Shown here: in pieces, positions 9,188-15,394 of the stretch
How the letters are laid out: each line of letters begins with the position of its first letter
How positions within the stretch are numbered: the stretch's first letter is position 1
Origin: a virus
DNA: 34,537 nt
Direction: 5' to 3' (one strand)
Virus record (IMG/VR): IMGVR_UViG_3300025732_000142
Coordinates: 1 to 34,537 of that record
Position numbers and translations under genes: made by a program
Notes under the pieces: model-generated
What the model was told of the DNA's origin: nothing
What the model saw: only the letters and a program-made list of their open reading frames with translations
Database searches by the model: none

Positions 9188-10573
9188 TTATTCAGTTTCA
9201 ATACAGGAATACCGTGCAGTATCTACAGTATCAAGCATCAATTGCTCAGGAGAATAAATCTCACCTTGCAATATACTCTTCAAAATAGAAGGGCTGAAAC
9301 CTGATACCAAGCCAATACCTTGATCTTTACAATCTGTAGGTACATTACCAAGTCTACCATTAACATTCCAAAATACTATTTCAGGCATTTTATATCCTGC
9401 ATCAGAATATTTTGCCTTAATAGCATCTAAGTTTGTTTGGTTACTGTCTGCCTCATTAAATTCCATATCACTAATGATAAGTAATTTAGTTGGCATCTCA
9501 GACTCTGGTAATGATTCTCTAACAGCACTGTTAAGAATCAAGTCAAATGTGGCCTGAAGATTTGTAGAATAACCCCACTTTGCATTTCCTAACTGACTCA
9601 TCCTTTGAGACAAATTACCTTTCAAGTAATTCATCTCAGGATTTTCTGAGAAAGTTATAAATGCATCTTTGAATATACCTTGATTTCTTTCAGAGATATA
9701 AATCCCTAAAGAAATAGATACATCCATAGGAAGACCATTCATACTACCACTGACATCACATACAGGAAGTATTCTTTCTGTACTATCTGCCATGTAATCT
9801 GGTAAGGAATTCCATTGAGCTTCTACTGCATCAGCATTTTCTCCATTATTAATTGCTTGATACAATTGATGAGGAAATAATACACTTGCATTAATCTTCT
9901 GTTTGCCTGCCTGAACATCAGCAATATACTCTGCATATCTCTGACCATCACGGTTAAAGAATGCTTTTCTATGCTTATTCATAGCAATTGAAGGTACCTG
10001 AGAGTAATTAATCTCAGACCATTCATTGGCACACATTTGAGTCTCCACTACTTTGGTCATTGACACAAGTTTCTTACGGAACTCTTTTGGAGTTATGTTA
10101 AAATACTTATGCATGGCTACAAACCATTTACCTTTTCTTGGAAACCATTTAGCTAAGAGATTAGCATTAGGAGATTCTTCAAGTTGAGTAGATAACCAAT
10201 TGAGATTGTTCTCATTTGGTTGCTCAATCTTGAATACATCTTTCCAATATCCAAATTCTGGGATATATATAGCTAATTGATCATAATCATAGGAATTAAA
10301 CCTATTCAAATGTTGCATAACTATTTGAAAGAATCTTTTCTCTCCTGCACCTTCTCTTGCATCACGAGCCCAGAATAAAATCTTATAAGCTAAGTTTTTA
10401 TTCTCTGCATGTGCACGGTCAAAAGCAAGTATAATGTCAGACTCTGACATAGTTCTACTTGCACCTGCTATAAAAAACAAATCTAAACAATAGTTTAAAC
10501 TTGTTGAATGAGTAATGGCTCCATTAGCAGTTGTGGAGTTATACTGTCTTGTTGCGTTGACTAAATTGGACAT
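9188..10573 (-). CDS. DUF2828 protein: TROVE-like domain plus von Willebrand A domain
   Basis: A 461-residue protein. Residues about 1-265 carry the DUF2828 pattern, related in layout to the TROVE ring of Ro60: T-A-N-G-A near 15, L-F-W-A-R-D-A-R-E-G-A-G-E-K-R-F-F near 66-82, E-F-G-Y-W-K-D-V near 106, V-E-T-Q-M-C-A-N-E-W near 176 and V-P-S-I-A-M-N-K near 193. The vWA domain has a full MIDAS: D-V-S-G-S (D273, S275, S277), T337 and D369. Ro60 proteins bind misfolded and Y RNAs. Nearby gaps are packed with RNA structure, so an RNA partner is likely (inference). Alternatively it may bind proteins through MIDAS only. The leader shares TTAGTAACCAATTAAA with 11640-11867. Confidence 0.85.
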   Translation of the reverse strand: MSNLVNATRQYNSTTANGAITHSTSLNYCLDLFFIAGASRTMSESDIILAFDRAHAENKNLAYKILFWARDAREGAGEKRFFQIVMQHLNRFNSYDYDQLAIYIPEFGYWKDVFKIEQPNENNLNWLSTQLEESPNANLLAKWFPRKGKWFVAMHKYFNITPKEFRKKLVSMTKVVETQMCANEWSEINYSQVPSIAMNKHRKAFFNRDGQRYAEYIADVQAGKQKINASVLFPHQLYQAINNGENADAVEAQWNSLPDYMADSTERILPVCDVSGSMNGLPMDVSISLGIYISERNQGIFKDAFITFSENPEMNYLKGNLSQRMSQLGNAKWGYSTNLQATFDLILNSAVRESLPESEMPTKLLIISDMEFNEADSNQTNLDAIKAKYSDAGYKMPEIVFWNVNGRLGNVPTDCKDQGIGLVSGFSPSILKSILQGEIYSPEQLMLDTVDTARYSCIETE

Positions 10574-10615
10574 ATTTTTGAGTTTAATTGGTTACTAATT
10601 TTTAAATGTAGGTTT

Positions 10616-10771
10616 GGGAAGGTACCTACCCCCTTTCGGAAGGTAGGTCCTTGGTGCCTACAGAATACAACTAAACCTACCTAATTACTTAGGAAAAGAT
10701 ACCTTCCCGGGTTAATCATTGCATAAGCAATGACTCTTTCATCATAGTTTAGTTTTGTGCTGAAGTATTCT
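10616..10771 (-). ncRNA. structured, possibly pseudoknotted leader of the DUF2828 gene
   Basis: AGAATACAACTAAAC at 10662-10676 pairs with GTTTAGTT (10747-10754) and GTATTCT (10765-10771), 15 bp in all with a 10-base bulge on one side. Inside are hairpins CCTAA-TTAC-TTAGG and TCATTGC-TTAT-GCAATGA. GGGAAGGTA at 10616-10624 is the exact complement of TACCTTCCC at 10700-10708 and would cross the main stem, making a pseudoknot or an alternative fold. ACCTACC/GGTAGGT (10624-10648) is a further hairpin. Orientation is assumed to be that of the gene. It could be an autoregulatory site or a separate RNA. Confidence 0.6.
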
Positions 10772-10772
10772 T
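10758..10772. repeat. 15-bp repeat, copy 1 (TGCTGAAGTATTCTT)
   Basis: Identical to 10939-10953 and matching 11322-11336 at 13 of 15 positions. All three lie in noncoding gaps around the DUF2828 gene. In this copy part of the repeat forms one strand of the main stem of the structured leader. Confidence 0.75.
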
Positions 10773-10785
10773 CCACACCGGCCAC

Positions 10786-10840
10786 TCTGCACTCAATTAT
10801 AAATAATTGTCTGTCCTTGTGAAACAGAAATGGTGCATTA
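10786..10840 (-). ncRNA. three-way-junction RNA element, copy 1
   Basis: TGCAC at 10788-10792 pairs with GTGCA at 10833-10837 to close the junction. Arm one is CAATTAT/ATAATTG (10794-10809). Arm two is CTGT/ACAG (10811-10827) with a loop that reads CACAAGG on the minus strand. It is strongly similar to 11294-11380, and where the two differ within arms the partner base changes too. It lies in the 400-base gap upstream of the DUF2828 gene, so it may act in that mRNA leader or as a separate RNA. Confidence 0.7.
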
Positions 10841-10973
10841 ACCAGGCTACTTTTTATTATAATTATTATTTTATAATTGCTGTAGTAGCCTTTACTTTTC
10901 AGAATACTGTACCAATTAAACTATTATATGTAATAATTTGCTGAAGTATTCTTTATTTTAAATTAGAGTGGTA
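10841..10973 (-). other. AT-rich gap with two inverted repeats
   Basis: AGTAGCC on both sides of an AT-rich hairpin (near 10845-10891 on the plus strand as GGCTACT...AGTAGCC) forms a stem, and AGAATACT/AGTATTCT forms another (about 10900-10952). The second includes a copy of the 15-bp repeat. No coding frame is seen. These lie between the stop of the 10974-11210 gene and the first three-way element. Confidence 0.5.
10939..10953. repeat. 15-bp repeat, copy 2 (TGCTGAAGTATTCTT)
   Basis: Identical to the copy at 10758-10772. It forms one side of an 8-bp stem with AGAATACT about 45 bases to the left, just after the 10974-11210 gene. Confidence 0.75.
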
Positions 10974-11210
10974 CTATAGACCGTACCACTCATCTAAATC
11001 TTGTTGCTCTGCAAGATATGCTTGGTCTAACATATCTTGAGCAATATCTCCATTGAGACAAGACCAATGTCTATACTCTTTGGTAGTAGCTTTAGCTCTC
11101 TTAGCTTTAATAAGCATCTTGAGAGTATTCCGGAGATGGTTTATATCCATGTCATCCACGGATATCTTCTTACCATCTTTCATTGTCCAATAAACTATTT
11201 CTTTATTCAT
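10974..11210 (-). CDS. small conserved phage protein (K-D-G-K-K-I type)
   Basis: A 78-residue protein. The N-terminus Y-W-T-M-K-D-G-K-K-I-S-V-D-D-M-D...H-L-x-N-T-L-K-M-L resembles a small domain found in many phages (a W-x-x-x-D-G-K-x-I...M-x-x-x-H-L-x-N pattern) with no known function. The middle is basic and the end acidic. It sits between two gaps of RNA-like structure, with a three-way element in its own leader, so it might belong with the DUF2828 gene (inference from position). Confidence 0.7.
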   Translation of the reverse strand: MNKEIVYWTMKDGKKISVDDMDINHLRNTLKMLIKAKRAKATTKEYRHWSCLNGDIAQDMLDQAYLAEQQDLDEWYGL

Positions 11211-11293
11211 AATCTATACATTTTTACAACTGCCGTTGTTGTTTTAATTATTCTTACATTTAATGGTAGTAAGATTTACCTATTAAATACCCC

Positions 11294-11380
11294 TCTGCAC
11301 TCAGTTGTAAAGACTTCTATCTGCCGAAGTATGCTTACAATTACAACTGCCTGACCTTGGGAATCAGGAATGGTGCATTA
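11294..11380 (-). ncRNA. three-way-junction RNA element, copy 2
   Basis: TGCAC at 11296-11300 pairs with GTGCA at 11373-11377. Arm one is CAGTTGTAA/TTACAACTG (11302-11310 with 11341-11349), longer than in copy 1 and containing the third 15-bp repeat. Arm two is CCTGA/TCAGG (11350-11368) with the loop CCCAAGG on the minus strand. Flanks CTCTGCACTCA and AATGGTGCATTA are identical in the two copies. Compared with copy 1, two A-T pairs in arm one are G-C here and one T-A pair in arm two is A-T. It lies in the leader of the 10974-11210 gene. Confidence 0.7.
11322..11336. repeat. 15-bp repeat, diverged copy 3 (TGCCGAAGTATGCTT)
   Basis: Matches the two identical copies at 13 of 15 positions and sits in the terminal part of arm one of the second three-way element. 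Confidence 0.6.
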
Positions 11381-11412
11381 GTATGAGCAGTTTTATATCC
11401 TACTCAAGAAAA

Positions 11413-11539
11413 ACTCTCATCCAAATATTGGATACTCAAATTCATGAGTACAAGGTTGCAACCCTTGACATATTCCTACCTCTAAAGTTAGAGCCGTTCA
11501 CCACTTCTACTGAATATGTTATCCTGCTTGGATGAGAGT
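11413..11539 (-). ncRNA. multi-branched structured RNA closed by a 12-bp perfect stem
   Basis: ACTCTCATCCAA at 11413-11424 is the exact complement of TTGGATGAGAGT at 11528-11539. Inside, in order on the plus strand, are hairpins TACTCA/TGAGTA, CAAGG/CCTTG with a 7-base loop, and ACATATTC/GAATATGT enclosing CTCTAA/TTAGAG. On the minus strand the closing stem is followed by TTTTTC, which could end the transcript. No protein frame is present. The small arms recall tRNA arms, but the layout is not a tRNA cloverleaf. Confidence 0.65.
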
Positions 11540-11545
11540 AAATAA

Positions 11546-11639
11546 ATAATTGCAATACCTAGATAAGTATATCCTTCTCAACTTATAGCTCTACCTTCGG
11601 ATGACCATTACTGGCTGTTAGAAACTATATTGCAATTAA
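11546..11639 (-). ncRNA. stem-closed RNA element after the 11640-11867 gene
   Basis: AATTGCAATA at 11548-11557 pairs with TATTGCAATT at 11628-11637, a 10-bp stem that starts immediately after the stop codon of the 11640-11867 gene. Inside, the minus strand has CCA-GTAA-TGG (a GNRA-type loop) and ATAAGT/ACTTAT. It may protect the 3' end of that mRNA or be released as a small RNA. Confidence 0.55.
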
Positions 11640-11867
11640 TTACAAGTTATCAATGGTAATAAGACTGTCTAAGTCTGTATACTTACCACTGTAAATTTTA
11701 CCATATCTAGATTCAACCCAAATACTATCTTGGGAAACTTCTAAATAATATTCTCGGTCTATACCTTTGACCGGAGTCTTTGCCTCTGATCTTCCTATAG
11801 AGCAAAACACTGTATAGACTAAGAGAGAGAATAGTACTCCATATAGGAAGTAAGTAGCTCTTTGCAT
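11640..11867 (-). CDS. small membrane-anchored protein
   Basis: A 75-residue protein with one N-terminal hydrophobic segment (residues about 5-23, L-Y-G-V-L-F-S-L-L-V-Y-T-V-F-C-S). This could be an uncleaved anchor or a signal with a Cys at 22. The remaining 50 residues are soluble and acidic. It has a leader of about 230 bases that begins at a copy of the 15-base promoter-like element (12106-12120). Unknown function. Confidence 0.65.
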   Translation of the reverse strand: MQRATYFLYGVLFSLLVYTVFCSIGRSEAKTPVKGIDREYYLEVSQDSIWVESRYGKIYSGKYTDLDSLITIDNL

Positions 11868-12105
11868 ATGCTATTGTTTAATTGGTTACTAATTTATTTT
11901 TAGCTATATTAATTAATACAGAATACACTATTAATATAGGAATATACAGTTAGTGTAGTGTTAATAAATACAGAGATAGGTTTGTAGTAATATAATTACA
12001 CTCATTAAAACAAGTTTATTTCCGCAAATTATTTAATTCAATAAGAGTTTAACAAGTATAGCGGGTTTAGCAAGTTGTAGACCGTTGATTACTAACAACA
12101 AGAAG
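11868..12105 (-). other. long structured leader, no gene
   Basis: No coding frame is seen in these 238 bases. CTATATTAAT and ATTAATATAG (around 11904-11938) form a perfect 10-bp inverted repeat, ACACTA/TAGTGT brackets part of it, and GTAAT-ATA-ATTAC forms a small hairpin near 11988. The leader ends with TTAGTAACCAATTAAA before the 11640-11867 ATG, the same sequence as ahead of the DUF2828 gene. Confidence 0.5.
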
Positions 12106-12120
12106 AGTAAAACACAGTTA
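12106..12120 (-). promoter_or_regulatory. TAACTGTG element, copy 1
   Basis: Minus strand TAACTGTGTTTTACT. Unlike the other copies it is followed by about 240 noncoding bases before the next ATG (11867). Upstream it shares a GAGCTWCGCG block with copy 2, so the pair looks duplicated. Confidence 0.6.
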
Positions 12121-12150
12121 TAAAGAAAGGCGCGAAGCTCTTGTATTAAC

Positions 12151-12187
12151 AAAAAAACAGAGTATGCCTTTGTAGACATACCCTGTT
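12151..12187 (-). terminator. rho-independent terminator after the 12203-12481 gene
   Basis: On the minus strand ACAGGGTATG pairs with CATACTCTGT (one wobble) around a 10-base loop and runs straight into TTTTTTT. It is one of the strongest terminators in the window. Confidence 0.9.
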
Positions 12188-12202
12188 TAGTGGCACCTGC
12201 TA

Positions 12203-12481
12203 TTATGCAGGTATCTCAATGCCAAATGTGGCAAGAGTAGCGCGTTTAGCACCATTACCCAATACACTCAACAGCACATTATCAGCGTCAATAACAGTAA
12301 CTGCAAAGTTTACAGTACTGCCAATAGCAACGCCTTTATCATATACAGTACTGTACATGATAGCACCAAACTGTTCTCCGTTGAATTCAACAGTACAGTT
12401 ATGGAACATTGTCCCGTTAACATTGGGTTTGCTGTTCTCAGCTACAGAGATTAATACTCCGGTTTTAATTAAATCTTCCAT
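12203..12481 (-). CDS. small beta-rich protein, possible OB-like fold
   Basis: A 92-residue protein with alternating beta stretches (T-G-V-L-I-S-V-A, N-C-T-V-E-F-N-G-E-Q-F-G-A-I-M, S-T-V-N-F-A-V-T-V-I-D-A-D-N-V-L-L-S-V). The pattern would suit a five-strand barrel, as in small nucleic-acid binding proteins. It has its own promoter-like element and strong terminator, consistent with high expression. Function not established. Confidence 0.7.
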   Translation of the reverse strand: MEDLIKTGVLISVAENSKPNVNGTMFHNCTVEFNGEQFGAIMYSTVYDKGVAIGSTVNFAVTVIDADNVLLSVLGNGAKRATLATFGIEIPA

Positions 12482-12523
12482 TGTGAAAAGTTTTAATGGG
12501 TTAATAAAATAAACAACAACAGT

Positions 12524-12538
12524 AGTAAAACACAGTTA
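12524..12538 (-). promoter_or_regulatory. TAACTGTG element, copy 2
   Basis: Minus strand TAACTGTGTTTTACT, 43 bases ahead of the ATG of the 12203-12481 gene. It is preceded by a run of eight T and a GAGCTACGCG block. Confidence 0.7.
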
Positions 12539-12660
12539 AAAAAAAGACGCGTAGCTCAAAAAGTGCAATGGCTTGTGCGGGGGTAATAGTGGGTAAAACA
12601 TAGCATTTTGTAACTACTTGATTATCAGCATCAAAGTCTACTTGCTCCACCGTGTGGATA

Positions 12661-12687
12661 AAAAGAAAGGGGATGTTACTCCCCTTT
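12661..12687 (-). terminator. terminator after the 12676-12822 gene
   Basis: AAAGGGG pairs with CCCCTTT on the minus strand and is followed by CTTTTT. The stem overlaps the stop codon. Confidence 0.8.
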
Positions 12688-12822
12688 CTCTATTTTCTCT
12701 TTAGTGTATATAGCATCAGGAATTACTACATCATCTATAAGAAAGTGTAATACTTTCTTAAGTTCTTCTAGTGTAATTTCATTTGCATAATACTTCTTAA
12801 TGTTTTGTTCCAAATAGTTCAT
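12676..12822 (-). CDS. small helical protein, unknown
   Basis: A 48-residue frame from ATG at 12822 to TAA. It is helical and charged (N-I-K-K-Y-Y-A-N-E-I-T-L-E-E-L-K-K-V-L). A good copy of the TAACTGTG element is not present ahead of it; only a loose TATCTGTAAAG is seen. It lies downstream of the terminator of the 12882-13103 gene, which may leak. Confidence 0.6.
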   Translation of the reverse strand: MNYLEQNIKKYYANEITLEELKKVLHFLIDDVVIPDAIYTKEKIEKGE

Positions 12823-12870
12823 AGCATATAATTTTAATTGTTTATTTCTTATTAAAGTTTCTTTACAGAT

Positions 12871-12893
12871 AAAAGGGGTTATTACACCCCTTT
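12871..12893 (-). terminator. terminator after the 12882-13103 gene
   Basis: AAGGGGT and AACCCCTT form the stem on the minus strand, followed by TT and A. It overlaps the last codons of the gene. Confidence 0.75.
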
Positions 12894-13103
12894 CTTGTAA
12901 TAAGCATCATCTGATAGCTTATATACTTCCCAAAGCTTTTCAACAAGTTTAGCAAGTTCTTCTGTATTAATCCTATTTTGATAGTATGCTTCATATTCCA
13001 TATTACCTAAATAAGTATACTCAGTATCATCACTTATTAAAGCTTGAATATGCTGAATAACATCAAGAAGTTCTTTCTTTGATTTGTTTGTTATAAATTC
13101 CAT
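12882..13103 (-). CDS. small acidic helical protein, unknown
   Basis: A 73-residue helical protein with many tyrosines (Y-T-Y-L-G-N-M-E-Y-E-A-Y-Y). It begins 28 bases after copy 3 of the promoter-like element and ends at its own terminator, so it is a single-gene unit. No domain recognised. Confidence 0.65.
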   Translation of the reverse strand: MEFITNKSKKELLDVIQHIQALISDDTEYTYLGNMEYEAYYQNRINTEELAKLVEKLWEVYKLSDDAYYKKGV

Positions 13104-13130
13104 AGTATATAGTTTTAATTGTTTAACAAT

Positions 13131-13145
13131 AGTAAGACACAGTTA
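13131..13145 (-). promoter_or_regulatory. TAACTGTG element, copy 3
   Basis: Minus strand TAACTGTGTCTTACT, ahead of the 12882-13103 gene. The preceding gene ends in an imperfect GAGGA/TCCTC hairpin that overlaps its stop codon. Confidence 0.7.
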
Positions 13146-13158
13146 AGACTCAGAGGAA

Positions 13159-13341
13159 TTAATCCTCCAAGTCTTCATTGTATTCAAATGTGCCTGTTTC
13201 TATATACTCTACAAGTTCTGCTTCATAAGCATATTCTATTTGAGCACTAGGCATTTCATAAATTTTTCTGCCGTCAACATCATCAACAGCAGTAATGGTA
13301 CCTGTAAAGCAGTACCATATAAAGATAATTTTTGCAATCAT
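13159..13341 (-). CDS. small protein with N-terminal hydrophobic segment
   Basis: A 60-residue protein. Residues 1-17 are hydrophobic (I-A-K-I-I-F-I-W-Y-C-F-T-G-T-I-T-A) and could be a signal or anchor. The rest is very acidic (E-Y-A-Y-E-A-E-L-V-E-Y-I-E...E-D-L-E-D). It is a single-gene cassette behind promoter-like copy 4. Unknown function. Confidence 0.65.
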   Translation of the reverse strand: MIAKIIFIWYCFTGTITAVDDVDGRKIYEMPSAQIEYAYEAELVEYIETGTFEYNEDLED

Positions 13342-13360
13342 AGTTTTAAATTTTAAGATT

Positions 13361-13375
13361 AGTAAGACACAGTTA
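13361..13375 (-). promoter_or_regulatory. TAACTGTG element, copy 4
   Basis: Minus strand TAACTGTGTCTTACT, 20 bases before the ATG of the 13159-13341 gene, the shortest leader of the set. Confidence 0.7.
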
Positions 13376-13381
13376 TTGAAT

Positions 13382-13402
13382 AAAAAGGGGATTACTCCCC
13401 TT
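13382..13402 (-). terminator. terminator after the 13401-13766 gene
   Basis: GGGG-AGTAAT-CCCC on the minus strand, followed by TTTTTA, starting at the stop codon. Confidence 0.85.
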
Positions 13403-13766
13403 ATAAGTTCTTAAACATATTAACTAAATCAGCATGGTCATCATTCCACTCATCTGGAATTTTAGGTAAGTCAGGCATATTCAAGTCTTTACCTGAATAG
13501 ACATGGTAGTCTAGTGATCCATAACCTCGGTACTTGCCAAATGTCTCTTGGACATATTCTTCAAGCATTTTCCACATTGCATTATAGTTGCACATTTCTT
13601 TACCATACTCTTTACTAGTTAAACCGTTAAATCTTGGTACATAACCCATAGTAAACCATGATGAATCACCTGTACATATTCGTACTTTCTCTGGTACAAA
13701 GGTGATAATAGGTACATTAATAGTTGTTTCAACTTCAATTTTTTTCATGTAAGTAAATGTTTTCAT
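13401..13766 (-). CDS. hypothetical protein
   Basis: A 121-residue protein, the longest of the cassette genes. The N-terminal half has beta stretches (V-E-T-T-I-N-V-P-I-I-T-F-V-P). The middle is rich in aromatic residues and the C-terminal part acidic (D-E-W-N-D-D-H-A-D-L). A second ATG at codon 7 is also possible. No family recognised. Confidence 0.65.
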   Translation of the reverse strand: MKTFTYMKKIEVETTINVPIITFVPEKVRICTGDSSWFTMGYVPRFNGLTSKEYGKEMCNYNAMWKMLEEYVQETFGKYRGYGSLDYHVYSGKDLNMPDLPKIPDEWNDDHADLVNMFKNL

Positions 13767-13792
13767 AACAAATAATTTAATTGGTTAATAGT

Positions 13793-13807
13793 AGTAAAAC
13801 ACAGTTA
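13793..13807 (-). promoter_or_regulatory. TAACTGTG element, copy 5
   Basis: Minus strand TAACTGTGTTTTACT followed by ACTATTAACCAATTAAA and the ATG of the 13401-13766 gene. Confidence 0.7.
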
Positions 13808-13815
13808 CACATAAA

Positions 13816-13840
13816 ACAAAAAGGGGAACTGATATCCCCC
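13816..13840 (-). terminator. terminator after the 13847-14176 gene
   Basis: GGGG(G) and CCCC form a stem around a short AT-rich loop on the minus strand, followed by TTTTTG. Confidence 0.75.
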
Positions 13841-13846
13841 TAATTA

Positions 13847-14176
13847 TTACCACTCAAATACTTCTGCAACATTAAGTTCTGCTTGTATCTCATCAGTTAC
13901 AGGTATGCTAAATACTATGTGTCCTGAACATACGTCCATAACATTGTCTTTAACATAGAACCCAATACTTGAAGTACACTTATGTCCATCGGGCTGAACT
14001 AACTGAACAGAACAATGATAGTATTCATGGCTCTTTGGATTTGGGGAACCAAAACATATTGCATTTGGGCTAAGTATTTCACGGGTTAGTGAACTTACTT
14101 CTCCTGTTGGCTTTTCCCCAAAGTTATCTGAACCTTGATTAAAGGCATCAATGGCAATTTTTGATAGATTTTTCAT
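13847..14176 (-). CDS. hypothetical protein
   Basis: A 109-residue soluble protein with scattered cysteine and histidine residues (H-E-Y-Y-H-C-S-V, H-K-C-T-S, V-C-S-G-H). These could bind a metal, but no standard motif spacing is present. The second half is beta-rich. Single-gene cassette behind element copy 6. Confidence 0.65.
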   Translation of the reverse strand: MKNLSKIAIDAFNQGSDNFGEKPTGEVSSLTREILSPNAICFGSPNPKSHEYYHCSVQLVQPDGHKCTSSIGFYVKDNVMDVCSGHIVFSIPVTDEIQAELNVAEVFEW

Positions 14177-14202
14177 GGTTAAATAATTTAAAAGTTATAA
14201 GT

Positions 14203-14217
14203 AGTAAGACACAGTTA
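14203..14217 (-). promoter_or_regulatory. TAACTGTG element, copy 6
   Basis: Minus strand TAACTGTGTCTTACT, 27 bases before the ATG of the 13847-14176 gene. Confidence 0.7.
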
Positions 14218-14228
14218 TGTATTTAAAA

Positions 14229-14250
14229 GAAAAAAAGGGGTTTCCCCCTT
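14229..14250 (-). terminator. terminator after the 14249-14410 gene
   Basis: GGGG-GAAA-CCCC (a GNRA-capped stem) on the minus strand, followed by TTTTTTTC. Confidence 0.85.
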
Positions 14251-14410
14251 AATCAACCATAAGCTTGTTTTCCTGTTTATAGGAATTTAGTAGGTCATAC
14301 AAGTCTTTTCTCTTTAACTTGGTTAATGAGTTTAGATACTTGTTATCAGGTTTTTGTCCTGATTTAATTAGTTCGGCTCTAATAAGAGCAATAATCATTT
14401 GAGTAAACAT
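14249..14410 (-). CDS. small basic helical protein
   Basis: A 53-residue frame from ATG at 14410 to TAA. Helical and basic (K-Y-L-N-S-L-T-K-L-K-R-K-D-L-Y-D-L-L-N-S-Y-K), a helix pair that could contact nucleic acid or protein. It is clearly a cassette gene, with element copy 7 ahead and a terminator behind. Function unknown. Confidence 0.65.
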   Translation of the reverse strand: MFTQMIIALIRAELIKSGQKPDNKYLNSLTKLKRKDLYDLLNSYKQENKLMVD

Positions 14411-14436
14411 AATAAAGAATTTAATGGTTCAATAAT

Positions 14437-14451
14437 AGTAGAGCACAGTTA
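14437..14451 (-). promoter_or_regulatory. TAACTGTG element, copy 7
   Basis: Minus strand TAACTGTGCTCTACT, then an AT-rich leader with AACCATTAAAT and the ATG at 14410. Confidence 0.7.
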
Positions 14452-14462
14452 CTATGTTAAAC

Positions 14463-14482
14463 AAAAAGGAGATTACTCTCCC
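14463..14482 (-). terminator. terminator after the 14473-14649 gene
   Basis: GGAGA pairs with TCTCC on the minus strand, followed by TTTTTG. Weaker than its neighbours. Confidence 0.65.
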
Positions 14483-14649
14483 TCTTGTTTAATCATTAGC
14501 ACTTGGAACAACCAATGTGTTCCTGTACTGTGGGTTTCAAACTTCTTGAGTAAACCTAGAGTAGTCCATTGGTTTATTTTAGTTTGAGCTTTGACGAGTG
14601 CCTCTGCATTTCCACAAGGCACTTCAATGAAAACAGTTTTGTATTTCAT
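14473..14649 (-). CDS. small protein, unknown
   Basis: A 58-residue frame from ATG at 14649 to TAA at 14473-14475. It starts beta-like (Y-K-T-V-F-I-E-V-P), has a helix (N-A-E-A-L-V-K-A-Q-T-K-I-N), and ends beta-like (H-W-L-F-Q-V-L-M-I). The beta-helix-beta order could be a small ferredoxin-like half-fold. Cassette gene behind element copy 8. Confidence 0.65.
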   Translation of the reverse strand: MKYKTVFIEVPCGNAEALVKAQTKINQWTTLGLLKKFETHSTGTHWLFQVLMIKQEGE

Positions 14650-14676
14650 GGTATAAAGAATTAAATGGTTATTAGC

Positions 14677-14691
14677 AGTAAGGCACAGTTA
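14677..14691 (-). promoter_or_regulatory. TAACTGTG element, copy 8
   Basis: Minus strand TAACTGTGCCTTACT, then AATAACCATTTAATTC and the ATG at 14649. Confidence 0.7.
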
Positions 14692-14697
14692 CAAAAC

Positions 14698-14717
14698 AAA
14701 AGGGGAACTTAATCCCC
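14698..14717 (-). terminator. terminator after the 14709-14858 gene
   Basis: GGGG and CCCC around an 8-base loop on the minus strand, followed by TTTTG; the stem overlaps the stop codon. Confidence 0.75.
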
Positions 14718-14858
14718 TAGCATTGGTGTGAGCATACATGCCCAGAACAAGCACATAAATCCCATAGATGCAAGTATGTTAGCACCCATAGACATTAATA
14801 CTCCAGAGAATGATCCTAATAGGATCACTCCAAATAAGTAAGCAGCAATTGTTTTCAT
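14709..14858 (-). CDS. small membrane protein
   Basis: A 49-residue, almost wholly hydrophobic protein (A-A-Y-L-F-G-V-I-L-L-G-S-F-S-G-V-L, then F-M-C-L-F-W-A-C-M-L), forming two short transmembrane helices with many glycine and methionine residues. Cassette gene behind element copy 9. Small phage membrane proteins of this kind often act on host membranes or transporters; no specific role can be given. Confidence 0.65.
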   Translation of the reverse strand: MKTIAAYLFGVILLGSFSGVLMSMGANILASMGFMCLFWACMLTPMLGD

Positions 14859-14883
14859 GGTTAATAGTTTAATAGTTATTAAT

Positions 14884-14898
14884 AGTAAAGCACAGTTA
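14884..14898 (-). promoter_or_regulatory. TAACTGTG element, copy 9
   Basis: Minus strand TAACTGTGCTTTACT, 26 bases before the ATG of the 14709-14858 gene. Confidence 0.7.
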
Positions 14899-14904
14899 AT
14901 ATAT

Positions 14905-14939
14905 CATTGTTAAGCCCCTAGTTTAGGAGCCTAACAATG
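14905..14939 (-). terminator. long hairpin overlapping the 3' end of the 14918-15106 gene
   Basis: CATTGTTA pairs with TAACAATG, and inside it GCCCCTA with TAGGAGC (one wobble). The stem includes the last codons and the stop. No T-run follows on the minus strand, so its action as a terminator is less certain than for its neighbours. Confidence 0.6.
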
Positions 14940-15106
14940 TCAGCAGCATTGAGTACCTTCATACAGATCTTAAAGCCAGCAGCAGGTGGACAATTGTCTA
15001 TGTATTGCTTTGCTAAGAATGCTGAATGTTTAGCACTAGCAGTGTATTGCAATGTAAGTACAGCTTGTCCTGAGTAATCTGTGATTGTTGCAAAGTAAAA
15101 TTTCAT
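14918..15106 (-). CDS. small protein, unknown
   Basis: A 62-residue protein with a beta start (K-F-Y-F-A-T-I-T-D-Y), a second beta (A-V-L-T-L-Q-Y-T-A), then a helix with A-K-H-S-A-F-L-A-K-Q-Y-I-D-N-C and a final helix. This beta-beta-helix order could be a small adaptor fold. Cassette gene behind element copy 10. Confidence 0.65.
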   Translation of the reverse strand: MKFYFATITDYSGQAVLTLQYTASAKHSAFLAKQYIDNCPPAAGFKICMKVLNAADIVRLLN

Positions 15107-15131
15107 GATAAATAATTTAATGGTTATGAAT

Positions 15132-15146
15132 AGTAAGACACAGTTA
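15132..15146 (-). promoter_or_regulatory. TAACTGTG element, copy 10
   Basis: Minus strand TAACTGTGTCTTACT, then ATTCATAACCATTAAAT and the ATG at 15106. Confidence 0.7.
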
Positions 15147-15151
15147 CTAAC

Positions 15152-15169
15152 AAAAGGGGATTATCCCCC
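15152..15169 (-). terminator. terminator after the 15174-15332 gene
   Basis: GGGGG and CCCC around a short AT loop on the minus strand, followed by TTTTG. Confidence 0.8.
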
Positions 15170-15173
15170 TCTT

Positions 15174-15332
15174 TTAATCCTCACTCCAAAACTCTATAAT
15201 CTCATATCCCATTAAACATTTACCTAACCCACCATATACTTCCCAAACTTCCTCTTTATTAACAAAATATTTTTCACATAACCCTTCTACATTATTACCA
15301 TTTTCATCCCAAACAATTTTATTATACCACAT
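15174..15332 (-). CDS. small protein, first gene of the left arm
   Basis: A 52-residue frame from ATG at 15332 to TAA. It is rich in tryptophan and glycine (I-V-W-D-E-N-G, E-V-W-E-V-Y-G-G-L-G-K) with two cysteines. It is the gene nearest the divergent region on the left side and has its own promoter-like element and terminator, so it is probably expressed early (inference). Confidence 0.65.
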   Translation of the reverse strand: MWYNKIVWDENGNNVEGLCEKYFVNKEEVWEVYGGLGKCLMGYEIIEFWSED

Positions 15333-15359
15333 ATCTTTAAATTTAATTGATTCAATAAT

Positions 15360-15374
15360 AGTATGACACAGTTA
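15360..15374 (-). promoter_or_regulatory. TAACTGTG element, copy 11
   Basis: Minus strand TAACTGTGTCATACT, the outermost copy, next to the divergent control region and ahead of the 15174-15332 gene. Confidence 0.7.
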
Positions 15375-15394
15375 CTGTATATAGTATGTACTAG

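What the first reader, a model, noticed from the sequence alone, without database searches (positions are those of the whole stretch)
9188..12105. Phage DUF2828 (Ro60-like) protein inside a cluster of structured noncoding RNA elements
The sequence shows a complete DUF2828 protein with an intact MIDAS next to two gaps of about 400 bases, in a window where most gaps are under 100. The gaps contain at least five separate base-paired elements. Ro60 (TROVE plus vWA) proteins bind Y RNAs, and bacterial and phage Ro genes are known to lie next to Y RNA genes. DUF2828 proteins have no known RNA partner. A phage ribonucleoprotein with its own RNAs, for example for RNA quality control, RNA decay or host defence, is my inference.
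Basis: partly seen in the sequence, partly recalled or inferred. Interest (0 to 1): 0.85.

Follow-up and report, generated by a model that had tools for sequence, protein, structure and literature searches.

The report
Phage Ro-like protein with Y-like RNAs
Beside a phage gene for a protein folded like the human autoantigen Ro60 lie three small hairpin RNAs of a type that recurs next to the same gene in unrelated phages of many bacteria, which suggests that phages carry their own version of the Ro60-Y RNA particle, a machine known for handling damaged or structured RNA.

Summary
Confirmed and extended. The gene at 9188-10573 (minus) encodes a DUF2828 (PHROG_850) protein whose AlphaFold model matches Ro60 over 394 of 461 residues (VIA Z 18.5; next unrelated fold 9.4). 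The gap directly upstream holds three copies of one RNA unit (H unit): a 7-8 bp helix, a short spacer, then CAGCA (at 10943, 10882 and 10762, minus). H units recur beside DUF2828 genes in 26 related crAss-like loci and in cultured phages of Campylobacter, Staphylococcus, Listeria, Enterococcus, Mycobacterium, Bacillus, Citrobacter, Cronobacter and Pseudoalteromonas. Within 2 kb of 22 cultured-phage genes there are 38 sense units, against 3 antisense and 3.1 +/- 1.5 in shuffles. In ten whole genomes strict units number 27 near the gene and 3 elsewhere; three related genomes without the gene have no clusters. In four phages a long unit carries a tRNA-like module that weakly matches Rfam YrlA, a bacterial Y RNA. 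Best reading: a phage Ro60-Y-like ribonucleoprotein with a distinct RNA signature. Two other element types in the gaps (T and A) do not depend on DUF2828. Transcription of these units, binding and function are untested.

The parts
9188..10573 (-). DUF2828 / PHROG_850 gene, 461 aa, Ro60-like fold (helical N part plus vWA domain)
9743..9757 (-). MIDAS motif DVSGS (residues 273-277)
   Evidence: invariant in alignment A2; coordinates by codon arithmetic
10901..10952 (-). H unit 1: helix AGAATACT/AGTATTCT, CAGCA at 10943
10844..10891 (-). H unit 2: helix AGGCTACT/AGTAGCCT, CAGCA at 10882
10616..10786 (-). H unit 3 (H4): helix AGAATAC/GTATTCT, CAGCA at 10762, inner hairpins, and long-range pseudoknot
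10616..10624 (-). 3' strand of the H4 pseudoknot, TACCTTCCC
   Evidence: pairs with GGGAAGGTA at 10708-10700; 3 of 9 pairs show changes on both sides
10700..10708 (-). 5' strand of the H4 pseudoknot, GGGAAGGTA
10783..10837 (-). T element copy 1 (neighbouring structured RNA, not specific to DUF2828)
11290..11377 (-). T element copy 2 (neighbouring structured RNA, not specific to DUF2828)
11412..11540 (-). A element, constant frame with variable arm (not specific to DUF2828)
10974..11210 (-). 78-aa ORF between the two gaps, with similar small genes in relatives
12094..12127 (-). copy of the repeated promoter-like block (CACAGTTA on the plus strand); possible start of the transcript that contains the array
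   Evidence: repeat family D4; function inferred

Best explanation
The DUF2828 protein is a phage Ro60-type RNA-binding protein and the H units beside its gene are its cognate Y-like RNAs. Shown: the fold match to Ro60; the conserved unit (helix, 1-3 nt, CAGCA, inner arm, closing strand, usually followed by G); its recurrence, strand and proximity to the gene in unrelated phages; its covariation; and in some phages a tRNA-like arm of YrlA type. Inferred: the protein binds the helix plus CAGCA; the units are released as small stable RNAs from a longer transcript; the arms (tRNA-like, or pseudoknotted in crAss-like phages) tether or gate a partner such as an exoribonuclease or a tRNA enzyme. The RNP would then handle structured or damaged RNA during infection, as Rsr and Y RNA do with PNPase in Deinococcus. 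I give about 0.8 to a functional Ro/Y-like pairing of this RNA with this protein and about 0.35 to RNA decay or quality control as the actual job.
For: Ro60 tops the structural comparison, Z 18.5 over 394 residues, best other fold 9.4. H units in 26 crAss-like DUF2828 loci. Cultured phages: 38 sense, 3 antisense, 3.1 +/- 1.5 shuffled; 27 strict units near the gene and 3 elsewhere in ten genomes; no cluster in three related genomes without the gene. 53 of 56 CAGCA sites in the gap have a helix of 7 or more pairs against 17 of 47 upstream. Pseudoknot kept with different sequence in diverged lineages. YrlA alignments at or beside long units in four phages, E 5e-7 to 2e-5.
Against: No binding, transcript or phenotype data for these units. 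YrlA matches are below the gathering score, and its stem differs. No sequence match to TROVE or to Ro60 in the PDB. Seven of 22 cultured loci have no unit above threshold, and the 47%-identical L016 has none. In the most studied case, Listeria cka15, the strongest transcript is ROOL and not the H units.
Confidence: 0.78

Rival explanations
1. The H units are cis-acting leader elements that control expression of the DUF2828 gene, for example by autogenous binding of the protein, and do not act as free RNAs.
For: In most crAss-like loci H4 ends 26-36 nt before the start codon, and an arm of H1 is complementary to the leader.
Against: Units lie downstream of the gene in Staphylococcus, Mycobacterium, Citrobacter and Cronobacter phages. 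L008 and L009 have a 49-aa ORF between H4 and the gene. Tandem copies and tRNA-like arms fit free RNAs better.
Confidence: 0.15
2. The RNAs act mainly as tRNA-mimic decoys or guides that protect phage and host tRNAs from nuclease defences, with the DUF2828 protein as stabiliser. This differs from the main reading in function, not in the pairing.
For: tRNA-like arms, arrays inside phage tRNA clusters, RtcB annotated downstream of the Listeria gene. A decoy role was raised for Salmonella YrlA (PMC7790460).
Against: Short units and crAss-like units have no tRNA-like arm. No PADLOC match for the protein.
Confidence: 0.3
3. The gap holds one large ornate RNA of the GOLLD or ROOL kind, and its neighbourhood to DUF2828 is incidental.
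For: The T and A elements are large-RNA-like, near tRNAs, and occur in records without DUF2828.
Against: H units are tied to DUF2828 in unrelated phages. No GOLLD or ROOL match in the window.
Confidence: 0.07

Closest known systems
Ro60 / Rsr with Y RNA (Deinococcus Rsr-Y RNA-PNPase; Salmonella rsr-yrlBA-rtcBA)
   Same: Ro60-like two-part fold with MIDAS; structured RNAs encoded next to the gene; tRNA-like arms in some phages; gene often near tRNAs, next to RtcB in Listeria
   Different: Protein belongs to DUF2828/DUF7788 and not to TROVE by sequence; RNAs come as tandem units with a CAGCA signature; no tRNA-like arm in the window
Rfam YrlA (RF02553)
   Same: Full-length alignments at or beside long units of Mycobacterium, Enterococcus and Pseudoalteromonas phages
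   Different: Scores 34-45 against a gathering score of 69; protein-binding stem differs; short units and crAss-like units do not match
Thermus phage phiLo Ro60 (PDB 9l5y)
   Same: A phage Ro60 with solved structure; VIA Z 12.0 to the window model
   Different: No detectable sequence similarity; its RNAs were not examined here
GOLLD / ROOL large phage RNAs
   Same: Structured noncoding RNA near phage tRNA genes
   Different: No Rfam match in the window; H units are small, repeated and tied to DUF2828

Membership tests
Ro60 (TROVE + vWA) | Overall fold of Ro60 | tested here: met
   VIA Z 18.5, 394 residues aligned, rmsd 4.5; predicted model, re-examination of Foldseek candidates only
Ro60 (TROVE + vWA) | MIDAS in the vWA domain | tested here: met
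   DVSGS, T337, D369 invariant in 20 sequences
Ro60 (TROVE + vWA) | Pfam TROVE sequence match | tested here: not met
   Only DUF2828 and DUF7788 at E up to 0.1
Ro60 (TROVE + vWA) | Binds Y RNA and misfolded RNA | not testable with these tools
   Needs biochemistry
YrlA / bacterial Y RNA | RNA gene adjacent to the Ro-like gene, closed by a helix of its two ends | tested here: met
YrlA / bacterial Y RNA | tRNA-like module | tested here: not met
   None in the window; present in long units of several cultured phages
YrlA / bacterial Y RNA | Rfam YrlA match above gathering score | tested here: not met
   None in the window; 28-45 bits against 69 in other phages
GOLLD / ROOL | Rfam covariance match | tested here: not met
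   No match in 10500-12200 up to E 5
Known anti-phage defence system | PADLOC profile match | tested here: not met

The most novel reading that the evidence does not exclude
DUF2828 proteins form a phage-wide Ro-like RNP family with their own class of Y-like RNAs, defined by a helix followed by CAGCA and usually borne in tandem, some units carrying tRNA-like arms and others a pseudoknot; the RNA class is not in Rfam as such and gives DUF2828 its first candidate RNA partner.
Probability: 0.72. Interest if true: 0.85.

Novelty: new variant of a known kind. Interest (0 to 1): 0.8.

Why it matters
Hundreds of sequenced phages (673 records) carry a DUF2828 gene, often labelled only 'RNA-binding protein' or 'hypothetical protein'. 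A shared RNA signature next to it across unrelated phages gives a concrete partner, a predicted binding site and simple experiments. It would make the question of why phages keep a Ro60 relative directly testable, and would extend Ro-Y biology to a large set of viruses.

Tried and rejected
Rfam on the gaps: only chance-level matches. The idea that all gap elements belong to DUF2828 was dropped: T occurs in 16 of 18 long records, and 13 of those 18 have no DUF2828 match (the records were chosen for T and may be incomplete). The idea that T is a multi-copy repeat was dropped: one copy per long record with the pattern used. RNAalifold on A1 gave a pseudoknot-free compromise and missed part of H4. 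Foldseek alone ranks isolated vWA domains first and shows no Ro60 among its 50 listed rows. The Listeria cka15 transcript peak first looked like support, but its coordinates map to the ROOL match. The 158-nt Campylobacter RNA lies beside a truncated DUF2828 paralogue but has no CAGCA unit. The genome-contig scan for T gave 5 scattered hits that were not inspected. Two key papers on bacterial Y RNAs (Chen 2014, Sim 2020) are not held, so statements about them rest on other papers and my own knowledge.

Full report
Observation. The 461-residue ORF at 9188-10573 (minus) is intact, matches DUF2828, DUF7788 and PHROG_850, and has homologues in 673 phage records. Upstream are gaps of 400 and 429 nt with a 78-aa ORF between them. 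The window belongs to an environmental phage of the crAss-like group: terminase about 24% identical to gut crAss-like phages, capsid protein related to csAssE and Cellulophaga phi17:2. The record is a 34.5-kb fragment.

The RNAs of the DUF2828 gap. Eighteen relatives were fetched from IMG/VR. Sixteen close ones have upstream sequence, and all show the same kind of tandem unit. Each unit is a helix of 7-9 bp, a spacer of 1-3 nt, the sequence CAGCA, an inner arm and the closing strand, usually followed by G. The window has three, with CAGCA at 10943, 10882 and 10762. Listing every CAGCA without a stem criterion, 53 of 56 sites in the 620 nt before the gene have a helix of 7 or more pairs (G-U allowed), against 17 of 47 further upstream. 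The unit next to the gene (H4) also has a pseudoknot; alignment A1 gives 21 double-change cells against 8.1 +/- 1.9 in shuffles. The 45%-identical protein of L016 has almost no upstream gap and no unit.

More distant relatives. Loci L030, L098 and L159-L166 have proteins 57-70% identical to the window's. Upstream of the gene they again carry H units, and the H4 pseudoknot is kept with different letters: GGTAGGCCAC/GTGGCCTGCC in L159, GGGGAGACC/GGTCTCCCC in L030, GACGGGCGCCA/TGGTGCCCGTC in L098, against GGGAAGGTA/TACCTTCCC in the window (pairings read by eye from the sequences). With the sixteen close ones this makes 26 loci. A pattern scan of IMG/VR for H4 found 16 stretches; as far as checked they are known DUF2828 contigs, except one that ends before the gene could be seen.

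Cultured phages. Twenty-two DUF2828 loci from phages of many hosts were read. H units lie beside the gene in Campylobacter (2), Bacillus (6), Citrobacter Mordin (4), Staphylococcus (3), Listeria (3), Mycobacterium (3), Enterococcus (2), Pseudoalteromonas (2), Cronobacter and a faecal phage. In the 2-kb flanks there are 38 sense units, 3 antisense, and 3.1 +/- 1.5 in 60 shuffles, at most 7. In ten whole genomes 27 strict units lie within 2.5 kb of the gene and 3 elsewhere, one of these 3.1 kb upstream in the same Bacillus array. Three crAss-like records without a DUF2828 match have single strict hits only, never a cluster. Seven of the 22 loci gave no unit above threshold, among them both Vibrio phages.

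Link to Y RNAs. Many arrays hold one or more long units. In Mycobacterium, Enterococcus, Pseudoalteromonas, Citrobacter and Cronobacter phages the long arm has a T-arm, an acceptor-like stem and a D-arm in that order, a permuted tRNA (order read by eye). Rfam YrlA aligns full-length at or beside such units in four phages with E 5e-7 to 2e-5, below its gathering score. The YrlA consensus stem is different and lacks CAGCA. The window's units have no tRNA-like arm.

The protein. AlphaFold on 20 homologues gives pLDDT 81.5 and pTM 0.84. VIA-align ranks Ro60 first with Z 18.5 over 394 residues, then D. radiodurans Rsr (12.2) and Thermus phage phiLo Ro60 (12.0); the best other fold has Z 9.4 and covers the vWA domain only. 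VIA-align re-examines only chains that Foldseek listed, and Foldseek's own E-values are weak. Sequence searches do not show the link.

Other elements in the same gaps. T (10783-10837, 11290-11377) is a three-way junction whose P2 loop can pair with its tail. In 77 distinct copies the pairing positions change together: TTCCC with GAGGGG 64 times, TTCCA with GATGGG 10 times, TTCAC with GAGTGG once, and two copies differ only at the last tail base. It is found once in most long records, most of which have no DUF2828 match, often upstream of other genes and near tRNAs. A (about 11412-11540) has about 30 variants with a constant frame and variable arms. These are not counted as part of the proposed RNP.

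Published data. PMC12282133 reports the Listeria cka15 homologue CKA15_055 in purified virions with 57% coverage and suggests Y RNAs among three highly transcribed regions; the strongest of these maps to a ROOL match and not to the H units. PMC6024767 reports that the most transcribed feature of Campylobacter phage NCTC12673 is a 158-nt RNA between gp012 and gp013; gp012 is a truncated DUF2828 paralogue. PMC7790460 describes Rsr, Y RNA and RtcB in one operon. No held paper links DUF2828 to an RNA.

Judgement. The pairing of this RNA unit with DUF2828 is well supported by comparison; that it is a physical RNP is inferred. It works like Ro60-Y, but the RNAs of the window fail two YrlA membership tests, so I do not file them as YrlA.

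Noticed in passing
window 10783-10837 and 11290-11377; L020-L137: T element: a pseudoknotted three-way-junction RNA with constant frame and variable arm, 77 distinct copies, usually one per phage record, not in Rfam and not tied to DUF2828.
   Followed up: partly
window 11412-11540; L004, L013, L015, L051 and others: A element: frame TACTCTCATCCAA...CAAGGGTTGCAACCTTG...TGAGAGTA with very different inserted arms; its hairpin next to the closing stem looks like a tRNA T-arm.
   Followed up: partly
L182 971-1522; Listeria phage cka15 26236-26727 (L190): The most transcribed region of Listeria phage cka15, unexplained in PMC12282133, corresponds to a ROOL RNA match (E 2e-16, just below gathering score).
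   Followed up: partly
Campylobacter phage NCTC12673 7097-7311 (L269): The 158-nt RNA reported as this phage's most transcribed feature (PMC6024767) probably lies directly upstream of gp012, a truncated DUF2828 paralogue; it has no CAGCA unit.
   Followed up: partly
L044:5738-6649 and others: A 303-aa gene of unknown function (MRNLSTKGLSMSQAQ...) often sits right behind the T element where DUF2828 is absent; no clear Pfam family.
   Followed up: partly
L168 3896-4138: Two annotated tRNAs of Cronobacter phage S13 have their anticodon arm replaced by an insert with ATTCAGCA, as if a tRNA carried an H-like motif.
   Followed up: no
window 12094-15376: Each small gene here is preceded by a copy of a repeated block (plus strand AGTAAnACACAGTTA), likely a phage promoter for minus-strand genes.
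   Followed up: no
window 10908-10920 and 10580-10595: An arm of H unit 1 (AATTGGT) is complementary to the leader before the DUF2828 start codon (ACCAATT); conserved in relatives.
   Followed up: no
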